Positions 11,090-61,795 of a stretch of DNA of 64,000 nucleotides are shown one piece after another. Under the pieces are notes generated by a model. That model did not search any database. It was not told where the DNA came from and saw nothing but the letters and a program-made list of their open reading frames with translations. Position 1 is the first letter of the stretch. Each line of letters begins with the position of its first letter. The stretch comes from Halovenus aranensis (lineage in GTDB: Archaea > Halobacteriota > Halobacteria > Halobacteriales > Haloarculaceae): the NCBI RefSeq assembly GCF_900100385.1, contig NZ_FNFC01000009.1, positions 62,001-126,000 of the forward strand, in the 5' to 3' direction. The position numbers and the translations under genes were made by a program.

Positions 11090-12145
<1,056 letters not shown>

Positions 12146-12158
12146 TACGGATTTTGCG

Positions 12159-12253
12159 AGTCTGTCCCGCCGTGACAACAGCAGACGAGTTTCACACGAT
12201 GTGAGACGACAATTCGTGTGACGTGGTCACGAAGCGTACCGCAGTAATCAGTG
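12159..12253. repeat. Dispersed intergenic element, copy A
   Basis: About 95 bp here align with 34294-34390 in the same orientation at roughly 80% identity by eye, with a single-base gap. Conserved parts are CCCGCCGT, CAGCAGACG, TTTCACACGA, a perfect dyad GTGAC-GTG-GTCAC at 12218-12230, CACGAA, CGTACCGCA and TAATCA. A second dyad, TCACA-CGA-TGTGA, is perfect here and only partly kept in copy B. It lies between thi4 and the STAND-like ATPase gene. Confidence 0.75.
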
Positions 12254-12384
12254 TGGTACTGCTTACGTTGTCTCGGAAGAGTCACCACAGACGGTGGCTC
12301 GTGCTCTTTGTGTCAGCACAGCTGTCTCGGGTCACACACGTCCGTACGAGCGCCGAGCAGTGGCGTCGCTGTCGCTCCCCTACT

Positions 12385-34166: not shown

Positions 34167-34293
34167 CGACTAGGTGTCGGTCTGCTGTCCGGATATAAAT
34201 TTCCGGAAATTGACATTTGTAAGCAGCGCTTCAACACTGTGTTTTTGTAGAGTAACAGAGAGGTCGCGGCCGCCACTCGTACTGATTATTGGG

Positions 34294-34390
34294 AGTCGTT
34301 CCCGCCGTCCCGACAGCAGACGCATTTCACACGACGTGACACGACCAGTCCTGTGACGTGGTCACGAAACGTACCGCAATAATCACTATC
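34294..34390. repeat. Dispersed intergenic element, copy B
   Basis: This copy aligns with 12159-12253 at about 80% identity. The perfect dyad GTGAC-GTG-GTCAC is kept, at 34353-34365. It ends right at the stop codon (34389-34391) of the winged-helix gene, and fills much of the 222-bp gap upstream of the MFS gene. Confidence 0.75.
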
Positions 34391-35345
34391 AAAGGCGGCG
34401 GTCGACGACCGAGAGGGAGTCATCGACGGTGAGTGTAAGCGTATCGCCGTCGCAGTCGACAGCAAGCGTCGCCTTCGATGGGTCGGTCGCGTCGATAGTC
34501 GTGTGGCGGTCGGTCGCCGCGAACGGCAGTTTCCAGATTGGCGTCGTCGTCACGTCGAGGCCGCGCTCGGCACAGAACCCGACCAGGCGGGCATCGCGGA
34601 GCAAAACCTCACCCAGTGTGAGGTTGTCTTTGTTGCCACAGTGGTCACAGCCACGCCGCACCAGCAGCGTCCGCAGGTCGCCACGGGGATAGCCAGTCTC
34701 CTCGCCGGCGACGAACTCGGCGTCGACCGCGTTGCCACACAGCGGGCAGGTCCCGCGGGCAAACGCCAGCCGCTGGCTCCGGTTGTAGGCGGCGACGTTG
34801 TCGAGGGTTTCCTCGCGGTCGTCCCCGAGCACGCCCGGAGGCGTCAGATTGTAGTCGTAGACGTACTCACAGCCGGGGCATCTGATGGCAAAGATAGCGT
34901 TGTCGTACTCGGCTTCGAGTGCGGTGTCACAGTGATAACACTCCTGGTCGAGTTCGAACGGCGCGAGCCACGCGTCGCCCTCGTCAGACCAGGTCCGAAT
35001 GGTACGGATGAGTGTTGTCCCCTCGGGGCGGAGCCGGAACCCCTCGCCCGGAGTACTGGCCAGTTCGGAGACGACCTGTGCGTCGTCGTCCGTCTCCTCG
35101 GGCGGAACTCGCTCGACGAACGTTCCGAGCAGTTCCTGCAGGTGGTAATTGAACCGACTGCTCTCGACATCCAGGTCTGCCTTCCGGCGTAGCTCCGAGA
35201 AGGGGAGAACCGGCGGCGGACCCTCACCACCCCGGGCCTCGCTGAGCGTCCAGAGGATGGCAGTCCGGATGTCGTTGCCGAGCAAGGCGAGCGCGTCTTC
35301 GGGTGGCAACTCCCCGTAGGTCAGCGGGGATTTCTCCGGTGTCAT
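34389..35345 (-). CDS. Winged-helix transcriptional regulator with zinc-ribbon C-terminus
   Basis: This 318-residue regulator has an ArsR-like winged helix (residues 14-100): LALLGNDIRTAILWTLSEA, FSELRRKADLDVESSRFNYH. The remainder contains cysteine pairs CYHC...CPGC (about 135-165) and CPLC...CDHC (about 200-235), typical of haloarchaeal wHTH proteins with two zinc ribbons. The ATG at 35345 is chosen over a GTG at 35351. It is divergent from the RND exporter gene, so it may control that exporter, a guess from position. Confidence 0.88.
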   Translation of the reverse strand: MTPEKSPLTYGELPPEDALALLGNDIRTAILWTLSEARGGEGPPPVLPFSELRRKADLDVESSRFNYHLQELLGTFVERVPPEETDDDAQVVSELASTPGEGFRLRPEGTTLIRTIRTWSDEGDAWLAPFELDQECYHCDTALEAEYDNAIFAIRCPGCEYVYDYNLTPPGVLGDDREETLDNVAAYNRSQRLAFARGTCPLCGNAVDAEFVAGEETGYPRGDLRTLLVRRGCDHCGNKDNLTLGEVLLRDARLVGFCAERGLDVTTTPIWKLPFAATDRHTTIDATDPSKATLAVDCDGDTLTLTVDDSLSVVDRRL

Positions 35346-35579
35346 AGACACCTCGTGGTCGAGGGCGGTCGAATCGGTGCTTGCTGGTATGTCCCGGGGC
35401 GGCCGGCCAACTTGACCCGGCCGAGACGCGAATGAATCTGCCGACGGTTCTCAGTGCCCTTCATCTAAATCGTATAAACATTTTGCCTCGTTCACATATA
35501 TAAATGTATCCGGGCGGTTCTGAACAGGAGCGCACTGTGGTCATTATAAGAGAGTCAATACACTACCACGTTTCAGAGA

Positions 35580-38093
35580 ATGAGAGAAACGCTTCTCGGG
35601 CGGGCGACCAGGTTCGTCACGGAGCACAACGTCGTCGTGCTGGTAGTGATGGTACTTCTGACCGGTGGTATCCTCGCCGGTATCCCGCAGTTGGATACGT
35701 CGAGTCAGTCTGGTGGCACCGCTGACCAGTTCGAAGATGTCGACCGCGTCCAGAAATCACAGTACATCGAGGACGCGTACGGCAACGCGACCGACGACGA
35801 GTCGACCAGAACGTTCGATCCGGTATACGTCTGGAACGAGGGCGGTAACGCGCTGTCCAAAGAGTCACTGCTTGCGGGGCTACGCTACCAGCAAGCAGTC
35901 ACGGAAAACGAGACCGTCCAGGCGGCGCTTCACGACGACGGGATTCAGGGCATCGAAAATCTCGTCGGAGCGCGAGCGGCAGACGGTGACGGCTCGCTCG
36001 ACGCCCAGATTGCGGCGCTCGAATCGATGAGTGACAGCGAGGTCGAGGCCGTCCTCGGCCGGGTGCTCGATGAGAACCCGCGTGCGACGCAGTTCCTCCC
36101 CACCGACCACGAGGGGACGACCTCTGCTGACCGACGCACGCTTGCCGTCCTCGACACGACAGTCGACAGTGAAACCCGCGAAGACGCCGAGAGCGTCCTC
36201 TACGAGGCGGCGACTGAACGTTCGGACGCCGGCTTTTTTATGTTGAGTTCTGACGCTTACGACGAGGCGACCTCGCAGTTCTTCGGTGAGATGGTCGAAC
36301 TCGTCTTGCCGGTGGCGCTGGCGCTCATTCTGTTTATTTTGGTGTTCGCGTACCGCGATATAGTCGACGTCGTCGTCGGCATGACCGGGGTCGTCCTGTC
36401 GGTGCTGTGGACGTTCGGTCTGCTCGGCTGGCTCGGCGTCGAGGCTGGCCTCATGAGTATCATTCCCGTCGTGCTGATTGCGGGACTGAGCATCGACTTC
36501 GGTTTCCACGTCTTCAACCGATACCGCGAAGAGCGCGGCCCCGAAGACGAGATTCGGGCACCGATGGCGAGGGGTGTCGCCCTCGTCGCGACGGCACTCG
36601 TACTTGTGGCCGCGACGGCCTCCATCGGCTTTCTGGCAAACCTGTCGAATCCGTTGCCGGTCATCCGTGACCTCGGTGTCACCGTCACGCTGGGCGTCGT
36701 CTCTGCGCTCGGTATCTTCGTCACGGTTGTTCCCGCACTGAAAATCAGCATCGACCGCACGCTCGAACGGGTGGGTCTCGACCGCCGGAAGGCACCCCTC
36801 GGTCACGGCACGTATCTGCGGCCCGTGCTCGAACAGAGTGTCACACTTGCCAGACGGGCAGCCCCCGTCGTGCTGGTGCTCGCGGTGCTCGTCGCCGCGA
36901 GCGGCGGAGTGGTCTGGACACAACTCGACCAAGAGAGCTACCAGCAGGCCGACGGCGACGTCGCAGAGTGGAAACAGCAACTGCCCGGGCCGCTGGGCTG
37001 GGAGGAAACCCCGATATTCGAGCAACAGCGCCACGTCGAAAGCGTCTATCAGCCCGCGAACGCAGACGATGCCATCCAGTCAGAGATACTCGTCGAGGGA
37101 GACGTGACGAGTCCGTCGACACTCGAAGCTATCGACGCTGGCGTCCAGACAATCGGACAGGAGGGACTGCTCATCGACCAGGCCAGAACGAGCGCCAGAG
37201 ACTCCCCGCTGACTGCGATGCAACGGGTCGCGGCCGAGAGTGAGGAGTTCGCGGCCGTCTTCGCCGAGGCTGACACCGACGGCAACGGTGTGCCAGACCA
37301 GAATCTCGCCGAGGTGTACGACGCGCTCTATGCGGCCGACAGCGAAACTGCCGGACAGGTCATCGAGCGGGTCGACGGCGAGTACCGGTCGGTCCTCGTG
37401 ACGCTCTCGCTGGACGCCGACTTCTCCGAATCGAGCGCCATTGCGCCCAAACTCGACGACGGAGCCGCTGTCATGGCCGATGACGGCCAGCGGACGGCAA
37501 CGGCGGCCGGCCCGATTGCGGTCAACGAGGCAGTACTCGACAACGTCATCGACGGCGTCGTCACGACGATGCTCGTCGCGCTGGCAGCAATCGTACTCGC
37601 GCTGGTGGTCGTCTTCCGGCTCATGCACGGCAGTGCGACCCTCGGCGCGGCCGTTGCTTGCCCAATCGTTCTCGTGGTGGGACTCGTCGTCGCCGCGATG
37701 TATCTGCTCGACATCCCGCTGACGCTGTTGACGGCACTGCTGATGAGTCTGGTTGTCGGTCTCGGTATCGACTACAACATCCACATCGGCGACCGCTTCG
37801 CCGACGAACTCCGCGGGGGGGCAGACTCCGTGTCGGCACTCCGGACGGCCGTGACCGGTACCGGCGGCGCGCTGCTTGGCAGTACGCTCACATCGGCGGG
37901 CGCGTTCGCGACGATTGCACTCGTACCCCACCCGCAGGTCCAGAGCTTCGGGAGCATCGTTGTCGTCGCACTCGTGACCGCCTTCGTCGTCAGTTTCCTC
38001 GTGTTACCGAGCGTGCTCTTGCTGTGGAGTCGCTACGCCGGGGTGTCACTGGCCGTCTCGACACCCACAGAAGAACCGACACCGCAGGATTGA
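35580..38093 (+). CDS. RND/MMPL family exporter
   Basis: This 837-residue membrane protein has two repeated units, each made of a hydrophobic helix, a large extracytoplasmic domain and a cluster of five to six helices. The conserved proton-relay and signature helices are visible as GLSIDFGFHVFNRYREERG in the first half and GLGIDYNIHIGDRFADELRG in the second, the G-x-x-x-D-Y/F motif of MMPL and Patched-like proteins. Such carriers export lipids or hydrophobic compounds. A TATA-like CATTATAAG lies about 35 bp before the ATG. It is divergent from the zinc-ribbon winged-helix regulator. Confidence 0.92.
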   Translation: MRETLLGRATRFVTEHNVVVLVVMVLLTGGILAGIPQLDTSSQSGGTADQFEDVDRVQKSQYIEDAYGNATDDESTRTFDPVYVWNEGGNALSKESLLAGLRYQQAVTENETVQAALHDDGIQGIENLVGARAADGDGSLDAQIAALESMSDSEVEAVLGRVLDENPRATQFLPTDHEGTTSADRRTLAVLDTTVDSETREDAESVLYEAATERSDAGFFMLSSDAYDEATSQFFGEMVELVLPVALALILFILVFAYRDIVDVVVGMTGVVLSVLWTFGLLGWLGVEAGLMSIIPVVLIAGLSIDFGFHVFNRYREERGPEDEIRAPMARGVALVATALVLVAATASIGFLANLSNPLPVIRDLGVTVTLGVVSALGIFVTVVPALKISIDRTLERVGLDRRKAPLGHGTYLRPVLEQSVTLARRAAPVVLVLAVLVAASGGVVWTQLDQESYQQADGDVAEWKQQLPGPLGWEETPIFEQQRHVESVYQPANADDAIQSEILVEGDVTSPSTLEAIDAGVQTIGQEGLLIDQARTSARDSPLTAMQRVAAESEEFAAVFAEADTDGNGVPDQNLAEVYDALYAADSETAGQVIERVDGEYRSVLVTLSLDADFSESSAIAPKLDDGAAVMADDGQRTATAAGPIAVNEAVLDNVIDGVVTTMLVALAAIVLALVVVFRLMHGSATLGAAVACPIVLVVGLVVAAMYLLDIPLTLLTALLMSLVVGLGIDYNIHIGDRFADELRGGADSVSALRTAVTGTGGALLGSTLTSAGAFATIALVPHPQVQSFGSIVVVALVTAFVVSFLVLPSVLLLWSRYAGVSLAVSTPTEEPTPQD

Positions 38094-42541: not shown

Positions 42542-42661
42542 ATGCACTGTTATGAGCATGAACGGTTTGTATATCTCGACTTGGCGGCGTGACGCCACAG
42601 ACCCGCTCTGGGTAACGTACCGCCCACCAACAGTTAGGTAGACGGACAGCGATGATTGCGT

Positions 42662-44083
42662 ATGAGCGACCCATTTGTGGTCATCGGCGGCGACGCTGCC
42701 GGACTGAGCGCAGCCAGCAAGTGCAAACGCGAGGACCCCGACCGCGAGGTCGTCGTCTACGAGCAAAGCGACTGGATTTCCTACGCCCACTGCGGGATGC
42801 CCTACTACATCAAAGGCGAGGTCGACGCCCTCGAAGACCTCCTCTCACTGTCCCCCGAGGCAGTCGAGAGCCGGGGAATCGACCTCCACAGACGCCACGA
42901 AGTGCTGGGTGTCGACCCCGAGAGCGAGACAGTCCGTGTCCGCGGACCAGACCGGGAGTTCGAACAGAGCTACGGCGACCTCCTCGTCGCGACCGGCGCA
43001 CACGCGCTGACCGCGCCAATCGACGGGACCGACCTCGATGATGTGTTCACGATGCATCACATGCACGCCGCGGCGGCCGTCCGGGCGTTTCTGGCACCGC
43101 CCGGTGAGGAAGTGGACGCCTTCGATGCCGGGTACGTCGACGTCGATGTCGAGGCGTACCACAGCCGTGACCCGCCCGAGACCGTCGCTATCGTCGGCGG
43201 CGGCTACGTCGGCGTCGAGATGGCCGAAGCGTTCCGCGCTCGCGGACTGGAGACACACCTTTACCAGCGCTCGGACCGGCCAGTCCCGCCGTTCGGGGCC
43301 GCTGTCGGCGACCAAGTGGCCGAGACACTCGCCGACGCCGGTGTCGACCTCCATCTCGGTACGGCCGTCACCGGGCTGGAAGGCAACGGCCGCATCGAGC
43401 GCGTCGAAGCGGCCGACGGAGCGGTCGACGTAGACCTCGCGCTCGTGGGTATCGGCATCCGTCCGAACACCGAACTCGTCGCCGACACCGCAGTCGCCTG
43501 TGGCGACTCCGGCGCGATTGTGACCGACGAGTACGGCCACACCACCGTCGACGGAATCTACGCGGCCGGCGACTGTGCCGAGATGGACCACGTGGTGACC
43601 GGAGAGCCAGACTGGGTCCCGCTCGGGCTGACGGCCAACCGCGCCGGGCGAGCCATCGGCCAGACCGTCGCCGGTGACCCCGAACCGGTCGGGGAAATTG
43701 CCGGGACGGCAGTCCTGAAAGCGTTCGACCTGGAGTGTGGCCGGACCGGTCTCGTCGACCACGACGCCGCCCGCGAGGCGGGCTTTACTCCTGTCTCGGA
43801 GACGGTGACCGCCGGCTCGCGGTCGGGCTACTATCCGGGCAGCGCCGACACGACGGTGACACTCGTCGCCGACCGCGACAGTGGCCGCCTGCTCGGAGGG
43901 ACAATTGCCGGCGAGGACCGAGCGGCAATCCGCATCGACACGCTCGCTACGGCGCTCGACGGTGGGCTGACCGTCGCCGAACTCGAGCGGCTCGATTTGG
44001 CGTACGCACCCCCCTTCAGTCCCGTGTGGGACCCGGTGTTGGTCGCGGCGAAGGTACTCGGGGGGCAACTGGACGAGGCCTGA
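42662..44083 (+). CDS. CoA-disulfide reductase/NADH oxidase-like flavoprotein
   Basis: This 473-residue flavoprotein belongs to the group of coenzyme A disulfide reductases and NADH oxidases with a single redox cysteine. The FAD-binding start FVVIGGDAAGLSAASK is followed by the active-site cysteine in ISYAHCGMPYYIKGE. The NAD(P) site TVAIVGGGYVGVEMAEAF and the FAD-end motif DGIYAAGDCAEMDHV are present, as is the C-terminal dimerisation domain (about 345-460). CoA thiol homeostasis or oxygen reduction are the known activities of relatives; which one applies is not decided by sequence. It is divergent from dys, with 120 bp between starts. Confidence 0.9.
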   Translation: MSDPFVVIGGDAAGLSAASKCKREDPDREVVVYEQSDWISYAHCGMPYYIKGEVDALEDLLSLSPEAVESRGIDLHRRHEVLGVDPESETVRVRGPDREFEQSYGDLLVATGAHALTAPIDGTDLDDVFTMHHMHAAAAVRAFLAPPGEEVDAFDAGYVDVDVEAYHSRDPPETVAIVGGGYVGVEMAEAFRARGLETHLYQRSDRPVPPFGAAVGDQVAETLADAGVDLHLGTAVTGLEGNGRIERVEAADGAVDVDLALVGIGIRPNTELVADTAVACGDSGAIVTDEYGHTTVDGIYAAGDCAEMDHVVTGEPDWVPLGLTANRAGRAIGQTVAGDPEPVGEIAGTAVLKAFDLECGRTGLVDHDAAREAGFTPVSETVTAGSRSGYYPGSADTTVTLVADRDSGRLLGGTIAGEDRAAIRIDTLATALDGGLTVAELERLDLAYAPPFSPVWDPVLVAAKVLGGQLDEA

Positions 44084-44487: not shown

Positions 44488-44508
44488 CCTCGGGGCTTGA
44501 CCCCGAGG
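44488..44508 (-). terminator. Perfect hairpin of the GGGGTCA-loop type
   Basis: On the minus strand, CCTCGGGG-TCAAG-CCCCGAGG lies 5 bp after the stop of the 'GRY..VSPVF' gene at 44513. The sequence is nearly the same as at 17939-17961. On the plus strand, the DUF5786-like gene ends 140 bp before it. Confidence 0.6.
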
Positions 44509-44512
44509 GGGT

Positions 44513-45055
44513 TCACCAGGTCAGTTCCCAGGCGTGACTTTCGCTCGTGTCTGGTTCAGTTTCGTCTAGGGTCGGCCGCGAGTCCTCGGGGCCAAACTCG
44601 GCTGCGACGTGTTCGAACACCCCTCGTGCGAACCCCGGGCCGTACGGGAATCCCTGGAGGATGCCAACTCTCGCGGCCCTGTCTCCGATTTCGGCGGCGG
44701 TGTAGTTTCCCGCTGGGTTCTCCAGACTGCTGTTTCTGTATGCCTCGCGGTGTTGCTCGATTAACCTCCTAAGCGCCTCCGCAATCGTCGAAACGGAGTC
44801 GGGCCACGGAATCTCCCTCGCCGCCGTGGTGCCGCCCTGTTCCATCGTCTTGGAGCCAGTCTCGTCTCTGACCTCGGTAAAGGCCAGGACCACGTCTTCG
44901 GTCCGGTACCACGCTTCCGGGTCGACGCGGGGGAGGTGTTTCTCGAAGATTGCAATCACCTTTCGCTGGAAGACAGGAGAGACCTCACCCGCGCTCTCGA
45001 CGAACGCGACGACATACCGCCCGTCTGTTTCAGACCCTGGGTCGTAGGACTTCAT
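44513..45055 (-). CDS. 'GRY..VSPVF' family protein, copy 2 (tandem duplicate)
   Basis: This 180-residue protein of unknown function has every family mark: GRYVVAFVESAGEVSPVFQR, WYRTEDVVLAFTEV, GSKTMEQGG, IPWPDSVSTIAEALRRL, NPAGNYTAAEIGDRAARVG, FPYGPGFARGVF and the terminal AWELTW. It is the downstream member of a tandem pair with 45163-45705. Their first 40 and last 45 residues are almost identical, and nucleotides around the stop codon, including flanking CACCAGGTCAGTTCCC, match too, so the duplication is recent or kept alike by gene conversion. Unlike copies 1 and 4, no bat-type regulator follows; a hairpin does. Confidence 0.75.
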   Translation of the reverse strand: MKSYDPGSETDGRYVVAFVESAGEVSPVFQRKVIAIFEKHLPRVDPEAWYRTEDVVLAFTEVRDETGSKTMEQGGTTAAREIPWPDSVSTIAEALRRLIEQHREAYRNSSLENPAGNYTAAEIGDRAARVGILQGFPYGPGFARGVFEHVAAEFGPEDSRPTLDETEPDTSESHAWELTW

Positions 45056-45162
45056 TCCACAACAGTTGTCGCTCTGGACGGATATGTTACCGGCAACAAT
45101 TGTTGCTATGCGGTCGTGGACTCACGCAGGTGAGCGAGAGCGAGTACGACCGGCGGGCGGGC

Positions 45163-45705
45163 TCACCAGGTCAGTTCCCAGGCGTGACTTTCGCTCGTGT
45201 CTGGTTCGATTTCGTCTAGGGTCGGCTGCGAGTCCTCGGGGCCAAACTCGGCGGCGACCTGTCTGAACACGCCGCGTGCGAACCCCGGGCCGTACGGGAA
45301 CCCTTCGAGGATGCCGACTCTGACCGTTCGGCCGTCGTGCTCCTCGACGGTGTAGTTGCCCGCCGGGTTCGTTTGCGTGCTGTCTCTGTATGCCTCGCGG
45401 TGTTGCTCGATTAAGACCCCCAGCGCCTCCGAAAGCGTCGAAACAGAGTCGGGCCACGGAATGGCTTTCGCTGCCTCGGCCCCGCCCTGTTCCATCGTTT
45501 TTGAGCCAATCTCGTCTCTGACCTCGGTAAAGGCCAGAACCACGTCTTCGGTCCGGTACCACGCCTCCGGGTCGACGTGGGGGAGATGTTTCTCGAAGAT
45601 GTCGTTTACTTTTCGCTGAAAGACAGGAGAGACTTCGCCCGCGCTCTCGACGAACGCGACGACGTACCGCCCGTCTGCTTCAGACTCCGGGTCGTAGGAT
45701 ACCAT
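45163..45705 (-). CDS. 'GRY..VSPVF' family protein, copy 3 (tandem duplicate)
   Basis: This 180-residue protein is the upstream member of the tandem pair; the two ORFs have exactly the same length. It keeps GRYVVAFVESAGEVSPVFQR, GSKTMEQGG, IPWPDSVSTLSEALGVLIEQ, NPAGNYTVEEHDG and AWELTW. Differences cluster in residues 75-130, for instance GAEAAKAIPW against GTTAAREIPW. The ATG at 45705 aligns with that of copy 2; in-frame sequence further upstream has no similarity. The gene lies about 100 bp from the duplicated tRNA-Arg end at 45810, so it may have arrived with an integrative element. Confidence 0.75.
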   Translation of the reverse strand: MVSYDPESEADGRYVVAFVESAGEVSPVFQRKVNDIFEKHLPHVDPEAWYRTEDVVLAFTEVRDEIGSKTMEQGGAEAAKAIPWPDSVSTLSEALGVLIEQHREAYRDSTQTNPAGNYTVEEHDGRTVRVGILEGFPYGPGFARGVFRQVAAEFGPEDSQPTLDEIEPDTSESHAWELTW

Positions 45706-45914: not shown

Positions 45915-45987
45915 CGCGCGGCAAGGGATTTGAACCCTTGACCTTCTGGTCCGGAACCAGACGTTCTGTCCGCTGAACTAGCCGCGC
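45915..45987 (-). tRNA. tRNA-Arg (anticodon CCG)
   Basis: On the minus strand the acceptor GCGCGGC pairs with GCCGCGC, followed by discriminator G. The anticodon stem TCTGG/CCAGA encloses loop TTCCGGA with anticodon CCG. The T arm is AAGGG-TTCAAAT-CCCTT. There is no intron. Its 3' end is duplicated at 45810-45831. Confidence 0.96.
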
Positions 45988-46119: not shown

Positions 46120-46890
46120 TCAGACGTGCTCGCGTGGGAGTAGCTCTGTCTCGTCGCGGTCGGCGAGCCACTCGCTGAGTTTACATAGCTGTTCGGTGGC
46201 GGCCTCGAACAGTCGCTCGCCTTTCTCGGGGGTGGCGTCGGTCTGGTCGCCGAGTACCCCGTTGTCGGTGTTCTCGATGGCGTCGTAGAAGGTCCGTGCA
46301 CCGAACTGTCGGCCTGTCTCGCGGCCCCAGTCGACGAGTCCGTCGTCACGCGCCTCGGTCAGTCTGTCCTCGTGGACCAACGCCTCGGCGATGTGCATAA
46401 TCATCGCCGTCTCTTTCGGACCGCCGTGAGGACCGTTCACCTCGAAGCAGTCATCGACCAGCTCGGGGATACTCTCGTTCCACATCCACTCGAGAGCGTA
46501 GGCCGTCCCGTCATCGTGGAGACGACGGCCGACCTCGCGGAGGTGCTGGACGTTACCGCCGTGAGCGTTCACGAAGACGATGCGGTCGACGCCGTGGTAG
46601 GTGAGATTTCGCGCCAGCGACTCCATGTACTCCCGGAACACCGGCGGGTCGACCCACATGGTGCCGTGAAACTGCCGGTGATGCGGACTGACGCCGATGT
46701 TCACGGTCGGCGTACAGAGATACCCGGTCCGTGACGCCGCCTCGCGGGCCAGCGCCTCTGCGATGAGGTGGTCGGTTCCCTCCGGGAGGTGTGGGCCGTG
46801 TTGCTCGGTCGACCCCACCGGGACCAGCGCGAGCGATTCGGACTCGAAGTACGACTCGAGGTCGGGCCAAGCTTCGTCGCCAAGGTACAT
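46120..46890 (-). CDS. Creatininase-family metal-dependent amidohydrolase (possibly ArfB-like)
   Basis: This 256-residue hydrolase has the family metal-binding motifs: VPVGSTEQHGPHLPEGTDHL, VFVNAHGGNVQHLREV, and NGPHGGPKETAMIMH, which supply the Glu, His and Asp ligands. In archaea a creatininase-family enzyme, ArfB, deformylates an intermediate of riboflavin and F420 biosynthesis; the presence of an F420-type LLM gene 0.6 kb away and ribE 5.7 kb away makes this plausible but not proven. The ATG at 46890 is chosen because the conserved domain begins just after it. It is divergent from the thioesterase gene. Confidence 0.88.
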   Translation of the reverse strand: MYLGDEAWPDLESYFESESLALVPVGSTEQHGPHLPEGTDHLIAEALAREAASRTGYLCTPTVNIGVSPHHRQFHGTMWVDPPVFREYMESLARNLTYHGVDRIVFVNAHGGNVQHLREVGRRLHDDGTAYALEWMWNESIPELVDDCFEVNGPHGGPKETAMIMHIAEALVHEDRLTEARDDGLVDWGRETGRQFGARTFYDAIENTDNGVLGDQTDATPEKGERLFEAATEQLCKLSEWLADRDETELLPREHV

Positions 46891-46998
46891 ATCCAACCAC
46901 CGGAGTGCCGTCCATATATACTGTAGGGCCGTTTGCGGGAGAGATGCAAAACACACGGCAACCGGAAGGTGAAACTGCGTGGACGACACAGCAGAAGT

Positions 46999-47403
46999 AT
47001 GGCCGAATTCAACTACGAGACAGAGGTGTCGGTCCGATTTCAAGACCTCGACGTTGCCGGACACGTGAACAACGCAGTCTACGTGACCTACCTCGAAGAA
47101 GCCAGAATCGACTATCTCCAGGAGGTCCTCGGTATCGACAGCGCCGAGGCGTTGAGCGCCGTCGTCGCGCACACCGAAATCGACTATCGCAAGCCGGTGC
47201 GAGACGACAGCCACGTTACCATCGCGCTCCGGACGCGCGAGCCGGGAACCTCGAGCGTGCCAATGGAGTACGAGATACGCGCCGGCGACGAAGTCGTCGC
47301 GACGGCCGAGACCGTGATGGTCACCGTCGACTACGAGACCGGCGAGACGCGGCCGATGCCCGACTCCTGGCGCGAGCAAATCGCGGCCTTCGAAGGTCAC
47401 TGA
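46999..47403 (+). CDS. Acyl-CoA thioesterase, YbgC/FadM-type hotdog fold
   Basis: This 134-residue protein is a single hotdog domain. The active-site segment VRFQDLDVAGHVNNAVYVTY contains the family Asp (RFxDxDxxGHVNN), and YLEEARIDYLQEVLG forms the central helix. It would hydrolyse acyl-CoA thioesters of unknown chain length. The ATG at 46999 follows an AT-poor promoter region shared with the creatininase-family gene. The LLM oxidoreductase gene follows 44 bp downstream and may be co-transcribed. Confidence 0.9.
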   Translation: MAEFNYETEVSVRFQDLDVAGHVNNAVYVTYLEEARIDYLQEVLGIDSAEALSAVVAHTEIDYRKPVRDDSHVTIALRTREPGTSSVPMEYEIRAGDEVVATAETVMVTVDYETGETRPMPDSWREQIAAFEGH

Positions 47404-59868: not shown

Positions 59869-59967
59869 TCAGAACGCCATCGTTCCGAATCCGGACCGCC
59901 TGGATTAGACAGTAATCCCCCGACGCATGCAGTCGAGTGTGAGCGGCGTAGCTCGCGATGCGCTCGA
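59869..59967 (-). pseudogene. Decayed copy of the E1-beta (pdhB) 3' end
   Basis: This stretch aligns with 60728-60841, the last codons of pdhB, in the same orientation. The shared parts are TCAGAACGCCATCG, AATCCGGACCGCCTG, a TAATCC block, GTGTGAGCG-CGTAG and CGCGATGCGCT. A 14-bp deletion and many substitutions break the frame, so it is non-functional. The intact gene end lies 860 bp to the right, with a toxin-antitoxin pair between. Confidence 0.75.
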
Positions 59968-60727: not shown

Positions 60728-61795
60728 TCAGAACGCCATCGCTTCACGGATGCCGTCCTGAATCCGGACCGCCTGAGGTAGGTAATAATCCTCCAGCGCG
60801 TGCAACGGGATGTGAGCGTCGTAGCCCGCGATGCGCTTGATTGGGGCCTCCTGGTACATCAACGCCTCCTCCTGGATGGTGGCGGCGATTTCCGCACCGA
60901 GACCGCCGGTCTTGGGTGCCTCGTGGACGATTGCGCCGCGGCCCGTTTTCTCGAAGGAGTCGATGATGGTGTCGAAATCGAGCGGTGACAGCGAGCGGAG
61001 GTCGACGACCTCGCAGTCGATTCCTTCCTCGGCGAGTTCCTCGGCGGCGATAAGCGACGGCCGAGTCATCGCGCCCCAGGTGAACACCGAGATATCAGTC
61101 CCCTCCCGACGGACGGCGGCCTCGCCGAGGTCGATTTCGTACGAGCGTTCGGGCACTTCCTCCCGGAACGCCCGATAGATGAGCTTCGGTTCGAGGAACA
61201 TGACCGGGTCGGGGTCTCGGATGGCTGCCGTGAGCAGTCCCTTGGCGTCGTAGGGCGTCGACGGCGTGACCACCTTCAGCCCCGGCTCGTGGACGAAAAA
61301 CGCTTCCTTGGACTCGGAGTGGTGTTCGGGCGCGCGGATGCCGCCACCGTAGGGCATGCGGACCACCATCGGGAGGTTGAGCTGGCCGTGTGTGCGACTC
61401 CGCAGCCGGGAGGCGTGACTGACGAGCTGGTCAAAGCCGGGGTAGAGAAAGCCCATGAACTGGATTTCGCCGACCGGACGCATCCCGGACAGCGCGAGAC
61501 CGATAGACGCGCCGATGATACCCGACTCGGCCAGCGGCGTGTCGACGACGCGGTCGTCGCCGAACTCCTCGTAGAGGGCGTCCGTCGCACGGAAGACGCC
61601 GCCGTTGCGGCCGATGTCTTCGCCGAGCATCATCACACGCTCGTCTTGGCTCATCTCGGTGTGGAGCCCGTCACAGATGGCCTCGACCAGCGTCAGTTCG
61701 TCGACGCTGTCGGACTCCTCTGGCGTCTCTCGCTGTGTCGGCTCCTCGGACTGTTCTTCGACGTTCTCGGCGAGTGTCTCGGCGTAGGAACTCAT
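60728..61795 (-). CDS. pdhB: 2-oxoacid dehydrogenase E1 component, beta subunit
   Basis: This 355-residue protein is the beta half of the thiamine-diphosphate-dependent E1 of a pyruvate or branched-chain 2-oxoacid dehydrogenase complex. Recognisable parts are LVEAICDGLHTEMSQDERVM, MLGEDIGRNGGVFRATDALY, PVGEIQFMGFLYPGFDQLVS, and the C-terminal transketolase-like domain with GRGAIVHEAPKTGGLGAEIA. The N-terminus has a Glu-rich extension of about 30 residues. It overlaps the E1-alpha gene by 4 bp (ATGA). E2 and E3 genes, usually next in the operon, are not downstream here. Confidence 0.93.
   Translation of the reverse strand: MSSYAETLAENVEEQSEEPTQRETPEESDSVDELTLVEAICDGLHTEMSQDERVMMLGEDIGRNGGVFRATDALYEEFGDDRVVDTPLAESGIIGASIGLALSGMRPVGEIQFMGFLYPGFDQLVSHASRLRSRTHGQLNLPMVVRMPYGGGIRAPEHHSESKEAFFVHEPGLKVVTPSTPYDAKGLLTAAIRDPDPVMFLEPKLIYRAFREEVPERSYEIDLGEAAVRREGTDISVFTWGAMTRPSLIAAEELAEEGIDCEVVDLRSLSPLDFDTIIDSFEKTGRGAIVHEAPKTGGLGAEIAATIQEEALMYQEAPIKRIAGYDAHIPLHALEDYYLPQAVRIQDGIREAMAF

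What the first reader, a model, noticed from the sequence alone, without database searches (positions are those of the whole stretch)
12159..12253. Dispersed ~95-bp intergenic element with conserved dyads (second copy at 34294-34390)
Seen: the two stretches align over their whole length at about 80% identity and keep the perfect dyad GTGAC-GTG-GTCAC. Neither contains an ORF. Copy A lies before a STAND-like gene, copy B at the 3' end of a regulator gene. Two copies in 64 kb suggest many in the genome. It could be a small RNA, a MITE-type element, or a binding site for a chromosome-organising protein.
Basis: seen in the sequence. Interest (0 to 1): 0.65.

Follow-up and report, generated by a model that had tools for sequence, protein, structure and literature searches.

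The report
Tiny transposons landing on stop codons
The repeated stretch is a 109-base piece of jumping DNA, with no genes of its own, that is scattered through salt-loving archaea of the genus Halovenus and very often lands exactly on the stop signal of a gene, where its built-in duplication restores the signal and leaves the protein unharmed.

Summary
Copy A is 12146-12253 and copy B 34280-34388, each flanked by a 3-bp repeat. The host genome (a Halovenus relative) has 20 BLAST copies and 36 profile matches; 13 of 18 genus genomes have it, some with over 80 matches. It is a non-autonomous, MITE-type DNA transposon: 14-bp terminal inverted repeats (TAGTGATTNTTGCG), almost always exactly 109 bp (128 of 147), with an identical 3-bp flanking repeat, nearly always TGA or TCA (130 of 147). 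Orthologous empty sites, three of them in this window, show precise insertion. The target is a palindrome, GWC-TSA-GWC. The new point is where it lands: in 44 of 104 insertions the duplicated triplet is the TGA stop codon of the neighbouring gene, so the stop is rebuilt. A gene-caller-free frame test agrees (76 of 138 sense sides against 18 of 128 antisense). Both window copies sit on stop codons. No covariation and no orientation bias relative to the gene argue against a small RNA or a directional terminator. No mobilising transposase was found. The closest published relatives are the ~110-bp 'SMR-A' repeats of Haloquadratum, whose mobilisation is called enigmatic and which reportedly make no target duplication.

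The parts
12143..12145 (+). left 3-bp target repeat (TGA) of copy A; it is also the stop codon of the upstream Thi4-family gene
12146..12253 (+). copy A of the 109-bp element (108 bp here; left end eroded)
12254..12256 (+). right target repeat of copy A (TGG, one change from TGA)
11216..12145 (+). Thi4-family gene (309 aa) whose stop codon is the left target repeat of copy A
   Evidence: PF01946, E 5e-60
34277..34279 (+). left target repeat of copy B (TCG, one change from TCA)
34280..34388 (+). copy B of the 109-bp element
34389..34391 (+). right target repeat of copy B (TCA); on the minus strand it is the TGA stop codon of the DUF7347/DUF7351 gene
34389..35351 (-).
38091..38093 (+). empty site: TGA stop codon of the ORF 35580-38093; the Halovenus salina orthologue carries a copy exactly here (L152)
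44081..44083 (+). empty site: TGA stop codon of the ORF 42656-44083; the H. salina orthologue carries a copy exactly here (L046/L193)
46120..46122 (-). empty site: TGA stop codon of the minus-strand ORF at 46120-47400; the H. salina orthologue carries a copy here (L193:1648-1756); the flank beyond the stop has diverged

Best explanation
It is a non-autonomous DNA transposon (MITE-type), about 109 bp long, that is or was moved in trans by a transposase not found here. Shown: inverted ends TAGTGATTNTTGCG; a 3-bp duplication of the target (consensus T-C/G-A); a palindromic target preference GWC-TSA-GWC; near-constant length; distinct left and right subterminal motifs and a central dyad; precise empty sites in relatives; insertion of a second such element into this one; and location, in about half of the cases, exactly on the TGA stop codon of a gene. 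Inferred: a DDE-type transposase dimer binds the two ends, cuts the target with a 3-nt stagger and joins the ends. Gap repair duplicates TSA. When the target was a TGA stop codon, one copy of the TGA remains as the gene's stop, followed in frame by TAG and TGA from the element end, so the host protein is unchanged. Haloarchaeal genes often end GAC-TGA, which is half of the preferred target; that match explains much of the stop-codon bias, and a smaller residual bias remains.
For: Copies: 20 in the own genome by BLAST, 36 by profile, 13 of 18 genus genomes, none in the 98%-complete G007. Target repeats: identical in 76 of 81 exact-end elements and 130 of 147 relaxed ones, but in only 11 of the 20 older own-genome copies (my count). 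Because the repeats are direct (C..C or G..G) rather than complementary, a helix cannot explain them. De novo scan for inverted ends plus any 3-bp direct repeat in 1.03 Mb: lengths peak at 109 (86) and 108 (15) of 152 hits, and of the 103 hits of 105-112 bp 100 have TCA or TGA, the others TTA, TAA and AGT. Empty sites: L046, L152 and L193 against this window, L120 against L171. Nested insertions: L106, L119, L298. Order-wide search fixing only the target repeat, the 5-nt ends and the length: 16 of 392 genomes, reversed-pattern control 0 in all. Stop codons: 44 of 104; frame test 76 of 138 against 18 of 128; 10 of 10 sampled stop-adjacent genes have Pfam domains, several running to the last residues. 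End type next to the stop 43 left: 40 right, as expected for a symmetric target.
Against: No autonomous element or transposase with these ends was found: 30 of 74 PF01609 loci examined had no matching ends, PF13359 0 of 18 genomes, PF13586 0 of 5, and the apparently solitary ends that I fetched were mostly diverged or interrupted ordinary copies. Near-constant length over sequence clusters whose cores are only 42% identical is unusual for MITEs. The window copies have imperfect target repeats. Stop-codon enrichment depends partly on my own gene calls, and the PWM-weighted local test leaves only a moderate residual (43 against 8, expected share 0.64, p = 0.001).
Confidence: 0.9

Rival explanations
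1. Structured RNA or 3'-UTR element (small RNA, RNA-stability hairpin or transcription terminator) kept at gene ends by selection.
For: Intact copies fold strongly (z -5.4 and -6.5) and most lie just behind genes.
Against: No covariation over 20 copies; direct rather than complementary flanking triplets; no orientation preference relative to the gene (43:40); absent at orthologous gene ends; no Rfam match at the element; the window copies no longer fold better than shuffles at a notable level.
Confidence: 0.04
2. MITE of a conventional insertion sequence of the IS5/IS1031 kind: its transposase makes TNA duplications and the parent is merely absent from the searched loci.
For: 3-bp TNA duplications are the recalled hallmark of IS1031-type elements; IS5-like PF01609 transposases are common in these genomes.
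Against: None of the 30 PF01609 loci examined, of 74 matches, has ends beginning TAGTG or TACTG with a TNA repeat; recalled IS1031 ends begin GAG; the richest MAGs have only 1-3 PF01609 matches, though MAGs lose repeats.
Confidence: 0.35
3. Non-mobile binding site for a chromosome-organising or segregation protein that happens to be repeated.
For: Fixed 109-bp length, a central dyad and conserved subterminal motifs suggest protein binding.
Against: Copy number runs from 0 to about 100 within one genus, with target duplications and empty sites; not expected for a conserved host function.
Confidence: 0.02
4. Stop-codon bias is only survivorship: insertions are random in TSA sites and those inside genes and promoters are lost.
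For: No element was found inside a called gene (0 of 104); stop codons and 3' regions are safe places; the GAC-TGA gene end matches half of the target motif.
Against: Sites within 60 bp downstream of stops are equally safe but are used less than motif-weighted availability predicts (8 against 43, p = 0.001).
Confidence: 0.4

Closest known systems
SMR-A small mobile repeats of Haloquadratum walsbyi (HqIRS42, HqIRS43, HqIRS55; Dyall-Smith et al. 2011, PMC3119063; I saw passages found by term and the whole of section 25)
   Same: About 110 bp, prominent inverted ends, several families of one length, tens of copies, no transposase, ends unlike any known transposon, mobilisation unknown
   Different: SMR-A is reported to make no target duplication and to insert into near-terminal palindromes of PATE and IS605-type elements. 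Ours duplicates 3 bp, shows no hairpin at its targets and favours stop codons. The sequences could not be compared (no supplements).
MITEs in general
   Same: Short, non-coding, inverted ends, target duplication, many copies, nested insertions
   Different: No autonomous partner identified; length nearly invariant; stop-codon landing
IS5/IS1031-type elements and PIF/Harbinger-Tourist MITEs (recalled)
   Same: 3-bp duplication of the form TNA and a palindromic 9-bp target (recalled CWCTTAGWG for PIF; ours GWCTSAGWC)
   Different: End sequences differ (recalled GAG for IS1031); no PF13359 in 18 genus genomes; PF01609 loci have other ends
REP/BIME with RAYT (recalled)
   Same: Short intergenic palindromic repeats without their own transposase, perhaps moved by a host-encoded enzyme
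   Different: REPs have no target duplication and no full inverted ends at a fixed length

Membership tests
MITE | short and non-coding | tested here: met
   104-109 bp in 147 elements
MITE | terminal inverted repeats | tested here: met
   14-17 bp
MITE | target-site duplication | tested here: met
   identical 3 bp in 130 of 147, 76 of 81, 11 of 20 own copies
MITE | presence/absence at orthologous sites | tested here: met
   L046, L152, L193 against the window; L120 against L171
MITE | shares ends with an autonomous transposon | tested here: inconclusive
   none found; only part of the genomes could be scanned
SMR-A small mobile repeat | about 110 bp with prominent inverted ends | tested here: met
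   definition from PMC3119063
SMR-A small mobile repeat | no target duplication | tested here: not met
   3-bp duplication in 130 of 147
SMR-A small mobile repeat | inserts into near-terminal palindromes of PATE/IS605 elements | tested here: not met
   no stem enrichment at joined targets (mean 2.93 against 2.89 for swapped flanks); many targets are stop codons. PATE/IS605 hosts were not catalogued.
SMR-A small mobile repeat | sequence similarity to HqIRS42/43/55 | not testable with these tools
   the sequences are in supplements not held
IS5/IS1031 MITE | TNA duplication (recalled) | tested here: met
IS5/IS1031 MITE | ends like a resident IS5-type element | tested here: not met
   30 of 74 PF01609 loci scanned, none with TAGTG/TACTG ends and TNA
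structured RNA | compensatory base changes | tested here: not met

The most novel reading that the evidence does not exclude
A dispersed haloarchaeal superfamily of fixed-length (about 107-109 bp) mobile repeats, with at least three end types (TAGTG, TACTG, TACGG) and one target rule (TNA), is moved by a single kind of transposase that is not carried on any classical IS and may be a host-resident enzyme. It homes on gene stop codons as a safe haven, rebuilding the stop through its own target duplication.
Probability: 0.25. Interest if true: 0.72.

Novelty: new variant of a known kind. Interest (0 to 1): 0.48.

Why it matters
It gives a defined, testable case of a transposon whose target motif coincides with the end of genes, so that the duplication made by integration repairs the stop codon. 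It also gives clean ends, a target rule and recently active lineages (near-identical copies in strain SHR40 and Halorubrum sp. 48-1-W) with which to look for the enzyme behind short mobile repeats of haloarchaea, which a 2011 paper called enigmatic. For annotation, these elements can be masked precisely instead of being read as small RNAs or terminators.

Tried and rejected
Hairpin targeting: several joined flanks looked like hairpins to the eye; the test against swapped flanks rejected it (2.93 against 2.89 mean stem, n = 130). RNA covariation: rejected. Directional terminator: no orientation bias. Parent element: PF01609 (30 of 74 matches had loci), PF13359 and PF13586 gave no candidate. Pattern scan of one H. 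salina genome and of five low-copy genomes gave no widely spaced pair. A 1315-bp pair in Halorientalis (L144) held no recognisable transposase and one end was an ordinary copy; that locus was judged by eye, without a family search. L206, a PF01609 locus with an end-like 13-mer, had no partner. Viral contigs: 0 paired matches; 51 single-end matches, one per contig, taken as chance and not read further. Plasmids: a match over the whole element in the H. salina plasmid only, plus a weak 34-bp hit in Aeromonas. 'Unrelated cores': my first impression, corrected (42% identity between clusters against 25% shuffled).

Dropped rows. One search covered L112-L191 only (80 of 82 loci) and dropped elements within 30 bp of a locus end. 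One search used 50 non-stop elements for the motif. In some searches two pairs of the 44 stop-codon cases are probably shared ancestral insertions (L127/L141 by 97-98% flank identity, L145/L187 by identical gene ends), so independent cases are about 42. Intergenic space is overcounted because my gene caller covers 74% of the DNA.

Full report
What is there. They match over 97 nt at 85%. A whole-genome search with copy A finds 20 copies at E <= 3.3e-7 in the window's own 3.29-Mb assembly. Copy A is 12146-12253 and copy B 34280-34388. Immediately outside the ends lies a triplet, T-S-A. In relatives it is the same triplet in direct orientation on both sides: TGA/TGA or TCA/TCA and a few others in 76 of 81 elements with exact ends, and identical in 130 of 147 with up to two mismatches per end. 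In the older copies of the own genome 11 of 20 are still identical. Direct identity rather than complementarity separates a target-site duplication from an RNA helix.

Where it occurs. A sequence-only profile of the 20 copies finds 36 matches in the own genome and matches in 13 of 18 genomes of the genus, from 1 to 97 per genome, and none in the 98%-complete G007. A scan of named genomes with the paired ends returned 82 stretches: Halovenus salina JCM 30072, strain SHR40, many MAGs, and also Halorientalis regularis TNN28 and Halorubrum sp. 48-1-W. The contig lengths of G002 and G013 equal those of H. salina and SHR40, so the window belongs to a Halovenus relative. Paired ends do not occur in IMG/VR, and the only plasmid with a match over the whole element is one of H. 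salina.

It is mobile. A scan for inverted ends flanked by any 3-bp direct repeat, with no end sequence imposed, over 1.03 Mb of fetched loci gave 152 hits with a sharp length peak at 109 (86 hits) and 108 (15 hits). Of the 103 hits of 105-112 bp, 100 have TCA or TGA and one each TTA, TAA and AGT. The loci were chosen because they hold the first family, so this is not a random genome sample. Orthologous empty sites exist: the H. salina sites L046 and L152 match this window at 83-85% right across the junction, with a single TCA/TGA where H. salina has the element. L193 matches the window on both sides of a third site, with a diverged stretch beyond the stop codon. L120 is empty in L171. L081 and L171 share one insertion, so insertions can be old. 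Elements with other ends have landed inside this one, also with TCA duplications: TACTGTCGGACGTAA (L106), TACTGGTGGCTGTAA (L119) and TACGGTCGTTCGTGA (L298). A pattern that fixes only TSA, five end letters and the length finds such elements in 16 of 392 genomes of the order, in 9 of 95 genera, while the reversed pattern finds none. A few of these may be chance; the G335 match, for instance, lacks inverted ends.

Anatomy. 128 of 147 elements are exactly 109 bp. The elements of 109 bp fall into 22 clusters. Between clusters the cores are 42% identical, against 25% for shuffled cores, and the ends 68%. Conserved parts are the ends, a left motif AGTCTTTACCGC, a right motif CGAAAA-AAC and a dyad GTkTCACGnCGTGAmAC at the middle. 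A profile centred on the two ends and the middle is what one expects if a protein complex holds both ends; this is inference.

Target. Around the duplicated triplet the flanks read G-W-C on the left and G-W-C on the right, a palindrome. Hairpins at the target were tested and rejected.

Stop codons. With a simple codon-usage gene caller, 0 of 104 insertions lie inside a gene and 44 have the duplicated TGA as the stop codon of the adjacent gene. A triplet that is in frame after the insertion and existed before it must have been the stop codon already, so these are not truncated genes; 10 of 10 such proteins tested have Pfam domains, several reaching the last residues, such as the aminotransferase, acyl-CoA dehydrogenase and DUF7130 proteins. 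Without any gene caller, the frame ending at the TGA is open for at least 99 codons on 76 of 138 sides that read TGA, against 18 of 128 sides that read TCA. Expected from motif-weighted availability of stops and intergenic sites is 7%, an underestimate because missed genes inflate the intergenic class. The strictest comparison, stops against TSA sites within 60 bp downstream, gives 43 against 8 with an expected share of 0.64 (p = 0.001). So the motif explains most of the bias: haloarchaeal genes often end GAC-TGA (48 of 360 TGA genes, against 13 of the 44 insertions). A moderate extra preference remains. Both window copies are on stop codons (Thi4 gene; DUF7347/DUF7351 gene), and so are the three empty sites in the window (38091-38093, 44081-44083, 46120-46122).

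Mechanism. Shown: ends, duplication, target, empty sites, stop-codon landing. Inferred: a DDE transposase with a 3-nt stagger. The two ends are used next to stop codons equally (43:40), which fits a symmetric target and speaks against a directional terminator. The element's ends continue the stop in frame as TAG-TGA, which is read directly from the sequence.

What is missing. No transposase or autonomous relative with these ends was found. Only parts of the genomes could be read, and MAGs lose repeats, so absence is weak evidence.

Literature. Searches for haloarchaeal MITEs, 'Halovenus' with 'MITE' (no paper), 'small mobile repeat', 'SMR-A' and MITEs with stop codons in archaea point to one close precedent, the SMR-A repeats of Haloquadratum walsbyi (PMC3119063; passages and section 25 seen). 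These are about 110 bp, three families, prominent inverted ends, no known mobiliser, but reportedly no target duplication and a preference for IS605/PATE palindromes. Two of these features are not met here, so membership is not claimed. In these searches I saw no report of a mobile repeat that prefers stop codons; of the papers listed I read only passages or sections of two (PMC3119063, PMC10264941).

Verdict. A real, mobile, MITE-type element; ordinary in kind, unusual in its fixed length and in landing on stop codons, with an unknown mobiliser.

Noticed in passing
L131:1695-1772, L191:2992-3069, L173:1941-2018, L067:1618-1695 and others: A second family of mobile repeats with ends TACTGNYGG[CA][TC]GTAA, 75-78 bp and also 108 bp, also with TNA duplications; several short ones have a perfect palindrome at the exact centre.
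   Followed up: partly
L298:2151-2395: A third end type, TACGGTCGTTCGTGA, in a repeat of about 107 bp nested inside a 109-bp element, with a TCA duplication.
   Followed up: no
L297:1846-2375 and L154:4928-5197: 109-bp elements interrupted by unrelated longer inserts with ends GTGTTCAGATAAG or TGTTCAGATAAG, probably an ordinary IS-type MITE; the L154 insert contains a run of N.
   Followed up: no
window 44504-44803 and 45154-45453: A 300-nt direct duplication (84% identical, 650 nt apart) just before the minus-strand tRNA at 45915-45987.
   Followed up: no
window 59881-59967 and 60754-60840: An 87-nt direct repeat (77%) 873 nt apart.
   Followed up: no
L081 and L171; L127 and L141; L145 and L187: Pairs of MAGs that appear to share the same insertion at orthologous sites, so some copies predate species splits.
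   Followed up: partly
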